The position numbers were made by a program, and so were the translations under genes. A stretch of DNA of 64,000 nucleotides from a virus, in the IMG/VR virus record IMGVR_UViG_3300008448_000067, positions 1 to 64,000 of that record. One strand, given 5' to 3'. Shown here in pieces: positions 2,436-36,826 of this stretch. Under the pieces are notes generated by a model. The model ran no database searches and was not told the DNA's origin. It was given only the letters and a program-made list of their open reading frames with translations. Positions within the stretch are counted from its first letter, which is position 1. Each line of letters begins with the position of its first letter.

Positions 2436-2605
2436 TAAAAAACTTTCTTAGTTTTCTTATCATATTCACGAAGAGATTTATCACAGAAATCACGAATATT
2501 CTGTAGATTTGTCATATAGTTATATCGAATCGACATTGAATTACTAGGGTTTAACATATTTTCTCTGTATTGCTCTAGCAATGGTGGAATATTTAAATTA
2601 CTCAT
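2435..2605 (-). CDS. small protein between gp55 and gp47 (56 aa)
   Basis: Unrecognised 56-residue protein beginning MSNLNIPPLL. A start at TTG 2617 would add four residues, but ATG 2605 is preferred: GAGG lies six bases upstream, within the last codons of gp55, and the gene then overlaps gp55 by only eight bases. It is basic towards the C-terminus (KKTKKVF) with predicted helices and no membrane segment. The TAA overlaps the gp47 ATG. T4-like genomes often carry small uncharacterised genes at this position; no function is assigned. Confidence 0.7.
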   Translation of the reverse strand: MSNLNIPPLLEQYRENMLNPSNSMSIRYNYMTNLQNIRDFCDKSLREYDKKTKKVF

Positions 2606-3170
2606 CTTGATCCTCAATAAATTTTTCTACGCCCTTCTTGGGCTTTTGCTTTACAGGAAGTTTGGCTTCATACTTTTCGGCAAGTTCTGCTAGCTTTTCA
2701 TTTACATTAATATACACCGCATCAAAATGACTTCTATCTTCAGGAGCCATATCAACAAGAGTATTCATAATTATAGAATTTTCGAAACTCTTGTGTTTAA
2801 TATAAAGTTGTTTCTTTTCTTTTTCAATTCTACGTAAGAATGCATTATATGTAATCTGTGTAAAATATGCAAATGGATTATTAGTCTTATCTGGATTAAA
2901 GTTATGAAGATATCTCAAGCAATTCTCAATTGCGTCTCCAACCATTTCCTCACGATAAGAATATCCAGCGAAGTTTGGTCGAGTCGCGAGACGCTGTGCA
3001 ATTAACATAATACACTTACCAACATAATTTGGTACTGGAGGACGATCTTCTCCAAGGCGCTTTGTTTCCTGATACGCAGTATGGTACTTAATCATCTCAG
3101 TATAAAAAAGCTTATTATCAATATAATGAATTGGCTTCTTCTTTTTAGGTAGTGGTGTAGTAATTTTCAT
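2598..3170 (-). CDS. gp55: gp55 late-transcription sigma factor
   Basis: Phage-encoded sigma-family factor that, with the sliding clamp, directs host RNA polymerase to NATAAATA late promoters, which are abundant in this window. The 190 residues are close to T4 gp55 (185). The core region includes NPFAYFTQITYNAFLRRI (about residues 95-112), the gp55 version of sigma region 2, followed by KEKKQ. The N- and C-terminal tails are basic. AAGG lies upstream of ATG 3170. A full-consensus sigma70 promoter at 3375-3403 inside the preceding gene gives it a likely separate early transcript. Confidence 0.95.
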   Translation of the reverse strand: MKITTPLPKKKKPIHYIDNKLFYTEMIKYHTAYQETKRLGEDRPPVPNYVGKCIMLIAQRLATRPNFAGYSYREEMVGDAIENCLRYLHNFNPDKTNNPFAYFTQITYNAFLRRIEKEKKQLYIKHKSFENSIIMNTLVDMAPEDRSHFDAVYINVNEKLAELAEKYEAKLPVKQKPKKGVEKFIEDQDE

Positions 3171-3181
3171 TATTAATAACC

Positions 3182-3553
3182 TTAATTCAACGTTGGTTTT
3201 GACATCATGCTAATTAGTTTTTTATAACGCTCTTCAGACTTATTCATTTGTTCTAGAGCATGTTTTAAATAAGAATCAACGTCGGCTCCAGCTGCACACT
3301 CTACTAATTTTTTATAGTAATTGACCATAGATTCGCTTGGAACAAAGCTAAATACAATCTTGTTGTTATCTATAATTATATAATCAGATGCAGAAAATGT
3401 CAACACTTTTGTTATCTTAGAGCCCAGAATTCCAGATTCATCCATCGCATCTGTAATATAAAATGGGTTTATAATCTTGTAGTAATCAGGTTGAGGTTCT
3501 ATTTCTCCGATGATTTGTTCACCGCTAATAAGATTAAATACTCTGAACTGCAT
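3182..3553 (-). CDS. Sm/LSm-like small protein next to gp55 (123 aa)
   Basis: The N-terminal ~75 residues look like an Sm/LSm-type beta barrel: LISGEQIIGEIE (residues 8-19) resembles the Sm1 signature, followed by alternating hydrophobic strands and KIVFSFVPS. The C-terminal ~45 residues are helical and charged. No other domain is recognised. It lies between uvsW and gp55 and probably shares their early transcript. The coding sequence also contains a perfect sigma70 promoter for gp55. An RNA-binding or transcription-related role is a guess from fold-like sequence and neighbours. No gp33 (late co-activator) is visible in the window, so a gp33-like role is possible but unsupported by sequence. 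Confidence 0.75.
   Translation of the reverse strand: MQFRVFNLISGEQIIGEIEPQPDYYKIINPFYITDAMDESGILGSKITKVLTFSASDYIIIDNNKIVFSFVPSESMVNYYKKLVECAAGADVDSYLKHALEQMNKSEERYKKLISMMSKPTLN
3375..3403 (-). promoter_or_regulatory. sigma70-consensus early promoter inside the Sm-like gene, facing gp55
   Basis: On the minus strand, TTGACA (3403-3398) and TATAAT (3380-3375) are separated by exactly 17 bases: a 12/12 match to the bacterial consensus. The predicted start is near 3368, about 200 bases before gp55 and within the upstream coding frame. It could give gp55, gp47 and gp46 a transcript independent of the gp3/uvsY promoters. Confidence 0.7.
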
Positions 3554-3556
3554 ATT

Positions 3557-5023
3557 CTATACCCTTACGTTATAGATTTGGTACTCAAATTGTTCCGAAT
3601 CGTAGATTTTAGTTCGTTCTATAAAATGTTTAAGAGTATAATTTTGGTGTGACTTATAAGATAAATCATCTACAATATCATACAAAATAGCGCCTTCTTG
3701 TTTTTCTTTATGAAGCCGAAGCATTCTACCGATCGACTGTAAAACTTTAATTTTTGATTTAGACGGAGAAGCAGCAATCATATGATGAAGTCTATTAATT
3801 GAAACACCAGTTGAAGTAGTACCTAATGATGCTAACAGAATTGCATTCTCTTCTTCTTCTATCGCTTTTCGAATACTTTCACGAGTGTCACCACTAACAG
3901 AACCATCAATATAAAATACGTTATGATCTGTGCTTCTTGTGATGAGATCATAGAGTGATTTCCCATGATCCACAATTCTAAAGAAAACAAGCTTATTACC
4001 TTTCAGAGATAAACATAAGTTCTTTATGAACTTGTTACGTTCAGTAGAAGATATCAGATAATCAATTTCTTCAGCATATGTTTTTCCTCGTACACTCTTT
4101 GCAATTTCATCAGAGTATTTAAGTACAATACATTTAATTTTCAGCTTAGAAACATATCCTTGATCCATGAGCTCTTTAGTAGAGACTGCTTTATATTTTG
4201 GACCAAACAATCCTTCAATTGTTGCTTCATTGAGAGGATTACCATCAAGAGTTCCTGTGGTTCCGAATCTATATTTACAGTACTGTAAGCTACTCAGAAT
4301 TTGAATAAGCGAGGTTGCTTTTGCTCCGTGAGCTTCATCTCCAAACACTACACCAAATTGTTGGTACCATGATTTTGGCATTTTATTTTTGCCATTATTT
4401 AATGACTGCCAAGTTGTAATTACAATATCAGTTGGAACGTCGTTTGATCTATTTATTCCTTCTGTACTGCAATGAATTGTACCAGTGTATCCATAATCTC
4501 TAAAATCGCTGGCCATCTGATTCACCAGACCAATGGTAGGAACAATGATCAATCCTTTATGACCGAACTGCTGGTACCATCTCATAAGAACATAGATCAT
4601 GAAAGACTTACCAGAAGATGTTGGACTTACTAAAGTTCTTCTTGTAGATCTTAAACACTTTAAGATAGAATCAAACTGATAGTCTCGTGACTGGTATTTT
4701 TCCGGAATATTAAGAGATTGAATAAACTGCTCGAGTTCGAACTCAGAAATGTTTTCGTAGAATAATTCTTCATCAAACGAGAAACTATAGCCACGACTAT
4801 CACAAAATTTCTTTATACGTTGAGCAAGACCAGCATAACAAGTGCCTGACATCCTATTAATTAATGAAATATTCCCATCCCAAAGTCTGGCTTTGTACTT
4901 AGGATTAAACTTATATCCATCTGCTTTCCATGTAAAAGCATCAGCCAGTTCCATGATTGTCGAAGATTCTGCGCAGACCTTAATATGTACTCTGTCTATG
5001 AATTTTAAATGTACATCACTCAT
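3557..5023 (-). CDS. uvsW: UvsW RNA-DNA/DNA helicase
   Basis: Superfamily 2 helicase that unwinds branched DNA and R-loops, shifting T4-type replication from origin- to recombination-dependent mode. The length is 488 residues (T4: about 500). Walker A SPTSSGKS spans residues 133-140, the DEAH box is D229-H232, motif Ia-like VPTIGLVNQ is near 161 and motif VI-like QSIGRMLRLH lies in the C-terminal half. The N-terminal ~100 residues are the small UvsW-specific domain. ATG 5023 overlaps the uvsY stop codon (TAATG). Confidence 0.96.
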   Translation of the reverse strand: MSDVHLKFIDRVHIKVCAESSTIMELADAFTWKADGYKFNPKYKARLWDGNISLINRMSGTCYAGLAQRIKKFCDSRGYSFSFDEELFYENISEFELEQFIQSLNIPEKYQSRDYQFDSILKCLRSTRRTLVSPTSSGKSFMIYVLMRWYQQFGHKGLIIVPTIGLVNQMASDFRDYGYTGTIHCSTEGINRSNDVPTDIVITTWQSLNNGKNKMPKSWYQQFGVVFGDEAHGAKATSLIQILSSLQYCKYRFGTTGTLDGNPLNEATIEGLFGPKYKAVSTKELMDQGYVSKLKIKCIVLKYSDEIAKSVRGKTYAEEIDYLISSTERNKFIKNLCLSLKGNKLVFFRIVDHGKSLYDLITRSTDHNVFYIDGSVSGDTRESIRKAIEEEENAILLASLGTTSTGVSINRLHHMIAASPSKSKIKVLQSIGRMLRLHKEKQEGAILYDIVDDLSYKSHQNYTLKHFIERTKIYDSEQFEYQIYNVRV

Positions 5024-5457
5024 TAAATACCAACTTTGAACTTCTCAAAATCGATAGCAGCTTTAATATTGAAACCACGATTTGTAAGAGATTTGATGAC
5101 TGACTCAAGAAGATCTAACTTCTCTTGCTGAATGCCAATTTTAAGTGTGAGGTTAATCACTTCTGTATCAGCGTCGATGTAGTTGTTCACGTCCGAACGA
5201 ATGATCTTACCCTGAGGTGGCAACCGCCAACCCTTGGCATGAGTTTCTTCCGTCGGACCCATAGTAAAGAACTCGTGTTTAGCCAACTTCAATTGCTTGA
5301 ATTCGGCTTCATATTTACGAAGAATCAAACGTTCATTCGTAAACATCTTAAAATACTTATGGTGAAGCTTAGGAATACGTAAAACTTCGTCGCTCAACTC
5401 TGTGCGATCGATAGTTGCGTCTTTTTCCCATTCGGAGTATATATCTTCAAGTTTCAT
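5023..5457 (-). CDS. uvsY: UvsY recombination mediator
   Basis: Loads the UvsX recombinase on single-stranded DNA coated with gp32. The 144 residues match T4 UvsY (137) in length and pattern. The start MKLEDIYSEWEKDATID parallels T4 MRLEDLQEELKKDVFID, and the C-terminal helix has the IKSLTNRGFNIK segment like T4 IKSRGFAIK. That N-terminal match fixes ATG 5457. There is no convincing Shine-Dalgarno; the -10 of a sigma70-type promoter ends six bases before the ATG, so the early transcript is predicted to be leaderless. The stop overlaps the uvsW start. Confidence 0.93.
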   Translation of the reverse strand: MKLEDIYSEWEKDATIDRTELSDEVLRIPKLHHKYFKMFTNERLILRKYEAEFKQLKLAKHEFFTMGPTEETHAKGWRLPPQGKIIRSDVNNYIDADTEVINLTLKIGIQQEKLDLLESVIKSLTNRGFNIKAAIDFEKFKVGI

Positions 5458-5463
5458 AATATA

Positions 5464-5492
5464 AGTCTACCACAGATTGCAAAAAATGTCAA
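5464..5492 (-). promoter_or_regulatory. sigma70-type early promoter for uvsY (leaderless start)
   Basis: TTGACA (5492-5487), a 17-base spacer and TAGACT (5469-5464) match 10 of 12 consensus positions. The -35 begins at the base after the gp3 stop codon. The expected transcription start, about seven bases past the -10, falls on the uvsY ATG at 5457. Confidence 0.6.
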
Positions 5493-6008
5493 CTAAATTA
5501 GTTCGATATTATACTTTAAAAATTTAAAATTTGCTGTACACTGAATATAGTTGACATCTGAGTCAGTTGTGTTAAAATCTAAATTGCCCAAACTAATTGG
5601 AAAAGCATCATGAAAAACTACTTTAATGTTTGGCTGCATAGAACTATTCATAATAATCAAAGTAATATCAGAATATTCAGTTTCTGCACTTCCGAGTGGA
5701 GCCTGTCTAAGAGACTTGAATTGATCAAAATTTTCTGATGGTCCTAATTTAACCATCCAGTTGTGAAGCTCGAGATAGTCATTAATATCTTCACTCACTC
5801 TAAATGTAATAGACAAAGGACTATATTTAATATTTCCTGCAAGAGGAATTGATACAAACGGTGTAGGAGAATTAGCATCTCCTAGATCAACACCTGGAAG
5901 ACTCACATTTTGAATGTTAAAGTCTAGATTAGGAGCACGCATAAGAGTGAATTTAAATCCCAGAGGAGATAAGAAATTCTTGTTTGTTGGAATATTTAAA
6001 ACAGACAT
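5493..6008 (-). CDS. gp3: gp3-like tail completion / tube-terminator protein
   Basis: A 171-residue protein (T4 gp3: 176) with a tail-tube-type fold signature: FKFTLMRAPNLDFNIQNVSL, then LPGVDLG, TPFVSIPLAG, PLSITFRVSED and LHNWMVKLG. Many myoviral tube-like proteins show this 'F-x-x-R-x-P-N ... I-P-L-x-G ... F-x-V-x-E-D' pattern. The position directly after gp23 and before uvsY is that of gp3 in cyanophage-type T4 relatives, where it caps the tail tube and stabilises the sheath. A second gp19-like tube protein is the main alternative. AAGGA lies ahead of ATG 6008; both an early and a late promoter lie just upstream. Confidence 0.75.
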   Translation of the reverse strand: MSVLNIPTNKNFLSPLGFKFTLMRAPNLDFNIQNVSLPGVDLGDANSPTPFVSIPLAGNIKYSPLSITFRVSEDINDYLELHNWMVKLGPSENFDQFKSLRQAPLGSAETEYSDITLIIMNSSMQPNIKVVFHDAFPISLGNLDFNTTDSDVNYIQCTANFKFLKYNIELI

Positions 6009-6032
6009 AGTATTCCTTTAAGACTTAATATC

Positions 6033-6060
6033 ATTATACCATAACTATTTATAATGTCAA
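6033..6060 (-). promoter_or_regulatory. sigma70-consensus early promoter upstream of gp3
   Basis: TTGACA (6060-6055), a 16-base spacer and TATAAT (6038-6033): all 12 consensus bases present. The start is predicted near 6026, leaving a short leader with AAAGGA before the gp3 ATG. It can serve gp3, uvsY, uvsW and downstream genes early in infection. The spacer contains a late promoter element. Confidence 0.75.
6046..6053 (-). promoter_or_regulatory. T4-type late promoter (TATAAATA) for gp3, nested in the early promoter spacer
   Basis: A perfect TATAAATA on the minus strand, 38 bases before the gp3 ATG. It lies between the -35 and -10 of the sigma70 promoter, so the same DNA can be used by both holoenzymes at different times. 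Confidence 0.8.
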
Positions 6061-6063
6061 CAG

Positions 6064-6094
6064 ATAAAAAGAGAGGGAGCCGAAGCTCCCTCTC
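6064..6094 (-). terminator. intrinsic terminator after gp23
   Basis: A 10-bp perfect stem (6071-6080 with 6085-6094) closed by a C(TTCG)G tetraloop on the minus strand, followed by a run of five T. This is the strongest hairpin seen in the window and separates gp23 from gp3. Confidence 0.9.
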
Positions 6095-6125
6095 CAGGTT
6101 TGGTTGGTTATCCCAACTCTTATGA

Positions 6126-36798: not shown

Positions 36799-36826
36799 TT
36801 GACATTTATTTAAAACTATTTATAAT
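36799..36826 (+). promoter_or_regulatory. sigma70-consensus early promoter for the glycosyltransferase gene
   Basis: TTGACA (36799-36804), 16 bases, TATAAT (36821-36826): 12 of 12 consensus positions. The start is predicted at about 36833, only a few bases before ATG 36836, so the message would be essentially leaderless. The -10 overlaps the opposite-facing late promoter. Confidence 0.75.
36817..36824 (-). promoter_or_regulatory. late promoter for the large collagen fibre (TATAAATA)
   Basis: A perfect TATAAATA on the minus strand, 63 bases before the fibre ATG. It shares four bases with the -10 of the divergent sigma70 promoter, so the two polymerase forms should compete for the site. Confidence 0.8.

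What the first reader, a model, noticed from the sequence alone, without database searches (positions are those of the whole stretch)
6033..6060. Late promoter nested in the spacer of a perfect early promoter upstream of gp3
Minus strand: TTGACA (6060-6055), TATAAT (6038-6033), 16-base spacer, with TATAAATA at 6053-6046 inside the spacer. This gives dual-phase control of an operon that starts with a late structural gene (gp3) and continues into early recombination genes (uvsY, uvsW, gp55). It resolves how a late gene and early genes share one unit.
Basis: partly seen in the sequence, partly recalled or inferred. Interest (0 to 1): 0.66.

Follow-up and report, generated by a model that had tools for sequence, protein, structure and literature searches.

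The report
Late promoter nested inside early promoter
In a group of uncultured T4-like viruses, a short stretch of DNA in front of a tail gene carries two start signals, one inside the other, so the same genes can probably be switched on both early and late in infection; this is a compact, conserved version of a double control already known in related viruses.

Summary
It is not chance. In uncultured relatives fetched through uvsY, blind to the promoter, every locus whose uvsY is at least 81% identical and whose gp3 leader is held keeps it (11 distinct versions). All 20 hexamer and octamer bases are invariant; the other spacer bases vary, and gp3 fourfold sites differ by 44% on average. Relatives show the order of events: a late box behind the gp23 terminator is old and widespread, and an early promoter was added later, nested in this clade and in tandem in others. 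So dual early/late initiation is well supported, though no RNA data exist. The gp55 gene has its own early promoter (3403-3375), conserved at synonymous sites. uvsY keeps a perfect -35 with a poor -10 (5492-5464) that would start RNA at the ATG. Overlapping early and late promoters are already described for RB49 and S-PM2, so this is a new variant of a known kind.

The parts
6070..6095 (-). intrinsic terminator after gp23 (11-bp stem, UUCG loop, T run), which insulates gp3 from gp23 transcription
   Evidence: a stem and T run precede the late box in the relatives
6055..6060 (-). -35 element TTGACA of the early (sigma70-type) promoter
   Evidence: invariant in 11/11 distinct clade members, 4/6 in L021/L024/L026, absent in most other relatives
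6046..6053 (-). TATAAATA late-promoter box (gp55 type), nested in the early spacer
   Evidence: invariant in the clade; late-type boxes stand at the same place in most relatives that lack the early promoter
6033..6038 (-). -10 element TATAAT, with extended TGn at 6041-6039
   Evidence: invariant 11/11
6009..6032 (-). shared leader with Shine-Dalgarno AAAGGA (6019-6014); predicted early +1 near 6026, predicted late +1 near 6040
   Evidence: sequence; start sites inferred from standard spacing, not measured
5493..6008 (-). gp3 homologue (tail completion protein; PHROG tail-tube family phrog_45)
5464..5492 (-). weak promoter of uvsY: TTGACA-N17-TAGACT with TGn; its -10 ends 7 nt before the uvsY ATG, so RNA would start about at the ATG
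   Evidence: the -35 is kept in 8 of 10 distinct clade loci, the -10 is poor
5023..5457 (-). uvsY
   Evidence: phrog_231
3557..5023 (-). uvsW helicase
   Evidence: phrog_16; position after uvsY matches annotated cyanophages
3375..3403 (-). early promoter for gp55, TTGACA-N17-TATAAT, inside the 123-aa gene before gp55
   Evidence: conserved at synonymous sites in the clade
2598..3170 (-). gp55 late sigma factor
   Evidence: phrog_234

Best explanation
The 28 bp are two real promoters sharing the same DNA. Early in infection, unmodified host RNA polymerase with its main sigma factor uses TTGACA/TATAAT and starts near 6026. Later, polymerase carrying phage gp55 uses TATAAATA and starts near 6040. 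Both RNAs carry the same Shine-Dalgarno site and read gp3 and onward through uvsY and uvsW, probably to gp55. The two polymerases cannot sit there at once, so the site should switch from early to late use rather than add both. The late box is ancestral at this gene and the early promoter was laid over it in this clade. Shown here: the sequence, its conservation, the order of gain, and the lack of a strong terminator down to gp55. Inferred: that both starts are used, the timing, the mutual exclusion and how far the RNAs run.
For: Exact motifs with correct spacing, after a terminator and before a Shine-Dalgarno site and ATG. All motif bases invariant in 11 distinct loci although gp3 fourfold sites differ by 0.44 on average; the spacer outside the octamer varies. 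The loci were fetched by uvsY similarity, so the promoter did not select them. A late-type box stands at this gene in most uncultured relatives and in Melnitz, phiM12 and S-CREM1, without an early promoter. Early promoters arose at this gene in other lineages too, in tandem (L071-L073, L003, L043, L037); the early state needs at least 6 changes on the uvsY tree. The nested clade has 99% SH-aLRT support. gp55 is encoded nearby. MotA and AsiA were not found in this record or six relatives, while both were found in a T4-type control, which fits a phage without T4's middle mode.
Against: No transcript data exist for this phage or its host, which is unknown. The record is a 68.5-kb fragment, so missing MotA/AsiA there is weak evidence. 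L021, inside the clade, has lost the good -35 (TGTACA), so the early promoter is not essential everywhere. Mutual exclusion is argued from geometry only.
Confidence: 0.72

Rival explanations
1. Both promoters work, but the nesting has no regulatory meaning: the intergenic gap is short, an early promoter arose where space allowed, and the two act independently like an ordinary tandem pair.
For: Other lineages solve the same need with a tandem early-then-late order (L071-L073, L003, L043, L037). Nested matches also occur elsewhere in the viral collection near background rates.
Against: The exact register (one base between TTGACA and TATAAATA, 16-base spacer) is invariant across 11 diverged loci, though common descent could explain that.
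Confidence: 0.35
2. Only the late promoter is used; the sigma70 match is incidental or decaying.
For: The late box is the widely conserved element at this gene; most relatives have no early promoter here.
Against: A perfect 12/12 match is held invariant in 11 loci whose gp3 synonymous sites have diverged widely.
Confidence: 0.07
3. Only the early promoter is used; TATAAATA is a chance AT-rich spacer.
For: TATAAATA is no more frequent in the window than chance.
Against: The octamer is invariant while the rest of the spacer varies, and late-type boxes persist at this place in relatives without the early promoter.
Confidence: 0.06

Closest known systems
Overlapping early and late promoters of phage RB49 and cyanophage S-PM2 (reviewed in PMC2984593)
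   Same: T4-like phages without MotA; genes given both an early sigma70-like and a late promoter, proposed to stand in for the middle mode
   Different: Here the late box lies exactly inside the -35/-10 spacer, is conserved in register across a clade, and serves a tail gene followed by recombination genes. I could not read the original RB49, S-PM2 or Syn9 mapping papers, so an equally tight nesting may already be on record.
T4 late promoter (gp55/gp33/gp45 dependent, TATAAATA at -13 to -6; PMC1524935)
   Same: identical octamer, correct distance to the gene, gp55 encoded in the same record
   Different: shares its DNA with an early promoter; dependence on gp55 not measured
T4 homing-endonuclease genes with early/middle and late transcripts (I-TevI and others; PMC2988022)
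   Same: one gene served by RNAs of different phases, the late start close to the gene
   Different: there the early RNA hides the ribosome site; here the early start lies downstream of the late start and folding shows no difference at the ribosome site

Membership tests
T4-type late promoter | TATAAATA octamer at the right distance upstream of a late gene | tested here: met
T4-type late promoter | transcription depends on gp55 and the sliding clamp | not testable with these tools
   gp55 is encoded in the record; dependence needs an experiment
sigma70-type early promoter | -35 and -10 hexamers with 16-18 nt spacing, intergenic, before a gene | tested here: met
   12/12 with TGn
sigma70-type early promoter | active before phage protein synthesis | not testable with these tools
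   no RNA data
RB49/S-PM2-style overlapping early/late promoter pair | early and late promoter in front of the same gene, in a phage without MotA | tested here: inconclusive
   both motifs present and conserved; MotA/AsiA not found in 7 records while found in a T4-type control, but the window record is partial
MotA-dependent middle promoter | MotA box (TGCTTtA) centred at -30 with TATAAT | tested here: not met
   the -30 region reads TTGACATTATAAATAG, with no TGCTT

The most novel reading that the evidence does not exclude
The nested site is a self-switching control point for the late sigma factor itself. The early RNA runs through to gp55; gp55 then captures the box inside the same promoter, shuts off the early start and keeps its own operon running in the late phase, a positive feedback loop built into 28 bp.
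Probability: 0.15. Interest if true: 0.62.

Novelty: new variant of a known kind. Interest (0 to 1): 0.42.

Why it matters
T4-like phages without MotA lack the classical middle mode, and how they time recombination and late-sigma genes is still debated. This locus offers a natural series (late only, late plus tandem early, late nested in early, early -35 lost again) at one gene. It lets that question be tested by reporter constructs in laboratory strains, and it shows which element came first.

Tried and rejected
RNA hairpin control as in I-TevI: early and late leaders fold alike around the ribosome site, z-scores -0.9 and 0.2, so rejected. General enrichment of nested promoters in viral DNA: other instances are near the background set by a neighbouring offset and a permuted octamer, so not claimed. 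Nested-looking hits in L031/L033/L034 were dropped because their -10 abuts the ATG. A trade-off between early strength at gp3 and at uvsY gives Spearman -0.44, p 0.001, over 51 non-independent loci, with those three doubtful loci included: suggestive only. The Syn9 transcriptome paper (Doron et al. 2016) is not held, so mapped starts at gp3 of a relative could not be checked.

Full report
What is there. On the minus strand, between the gp23 terminator (6095-6070) and the gp3 start codon (6008), the sequence reads TTGACA T TATAAATA GTTATGG TATAAT (6060-6033). The -10 also has an extended TGn (6041-6039). A Shine-Dalgarno AAAGGA (6019-6014) and ATG follow. The gene is the gp3-like tail completion protein of cyanophage annotation, in the PHROG tail-tube family. 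Downstream are uvsY, uvsW, a 123-aa gene and gp55. The record is an IMG/VR virus contig of 68.5 kb. Its nearest named relatives are Kyanoviridae, but only at 42-44% protein identity for gp3, and the host is unknown.

Is it more than chance? Perfect early promoters are rare in the window (4 against 0.15 expected), but one of them is antisense inside a gene, so this alone is weak. TATAAATA is as frequent as expected, though all eight copies are on the strand of the structural genes, and the intergenic NATAAATA sites all sit 10-38 nt before a gene, including gp22 and gp23. A collection scan found 75 nested matches at this offset, against 51 at the neighbouring offset and 27 for a permuted octamer. 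Nineteen of the 75 are this gp3 site in other contigs, and neither control has any at gp3. So nesting arises by chance in large collections; what is special is conservation at one locus.

Conservation test. I fetched relatives by uvsY, so the promoter played no part in the choice. Every fetched locus with uvsY identity of at least 81% and a gp3 leader in hand keeps the nested pattern. Among 11 distinct versions, all hexamer and octamer bases are invariant (20 of 20, plus the single T between TTGACA and the octamer). All 7 bases between octamer and -10 vary. Fourfold sites of gp3 differ by 0.44 on average. Both elements are therefore under selection.

Order of events. In most other uncultured relatives, and in S-CREM1, Melnitz and phiM12, a terminator or short leader is followed by a late-type box in front of gp3 and no early promoter. 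L024/L026 have a degraded early -35, and L021, inside the clade, has TGTACA in place of TTGACA. L071-L073, L003, L043 and L037 carry an early promoter upstream of the late box, in tandem. On a uvsY tree the nested clade has 99% SH-aLRT support and the early state needs at least 6 changes. The late box is old and the early promoter was added more than once, which is good evidence that early expression of this region is useful.

The operon claim. uvsY in this clade keeps TTGACA in 8 of 10 distinct loci, but with a poor -10 ending 7 nt before its ATG; more distant uncultured relatives mostly have a good early promoter there. gp55 has a perfect early promoter inside the preceding gene (3403-3375). 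Across clade loci its -35 codons show 0 of 112 synonymous differences, against 583 of 1783 in the rest of the gene (two of the eight rows are second copies of the same contigs). So gp55 does not depend on the nested promoter for early expression, while uvsY may. There is no strong terminator between gp3 and gp55.

Mechanism. Most likely host sigma70 polymerase starts near 6026 early and gp55 polymerase starts near 6040 late, on the same DNA, with mutual exclusion as a geometric consequence. RNA folding gives no sign of translational difference between the two RNAs. MotA and AsiA were not found in this record or six relatives, whereas the same search found both in a T4-type Dhakavirus; with partial records this is supportive only. 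All timing is inferred.

Known context. A review of T4-like cyanophages states that RB49's middle mode is thought to rest on overlapping early and late promoters, and that S-PM2 homologues of MotA-controlled genes have both (PMC2984593). T4-like late boxes with a variable first base, and CTAAATA in Aeh1, are described in PMC1524935. The principle is therefore known; the exact in-spacer nesting, its fixed register over a diverged clade and the inferred order of gain are what is added here. The Syn9 mapping paper was not available.

Noticed in passing
window 3375-3403 (-): Perfect early promoter TTGACA-N17-TATAAT inside the 123-aa gene upstream of gp55; its -35 codons have 0/112 synonymous differences among clade loci against 33% elsewhere in the gene.
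   Followed up: yes
window 36799-36826: A perfect plus-strand early promoter (before a 1571-aa glycosyltransferase/methyltransferase-like ORF) overlaps a minus-strand TATAAATA (36817-36824, before a tail-fibre gene): its -10 is read on the opposite strand of the late box, a divergent early/late pair.
   Followed up: partly
L107 10370-10398, L128, L129, L156, L119: Another nested pair, TTGACAATATAAATAAAATTGTCTATAAT and variants, 17-18 nt before a 94-97 aa ORF near T4-like neck and packaging genes, recurring in several contigs.
   Followed up: no
L181, L187, L189, L193: Nested pair at offset 2 (TTGACAAATATAAATAAAATCTGTATAAT) 22 nt before a 291-aa ORF in contigs that also encode gp55 and gp47-like proteins.
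   Followed up: no
window 5464-5492 (-): The uvsY promoter of this clade would start RNA about at the uvsY ATG, implying a leaderless message or a decaying promoter.
   Followed up: partly
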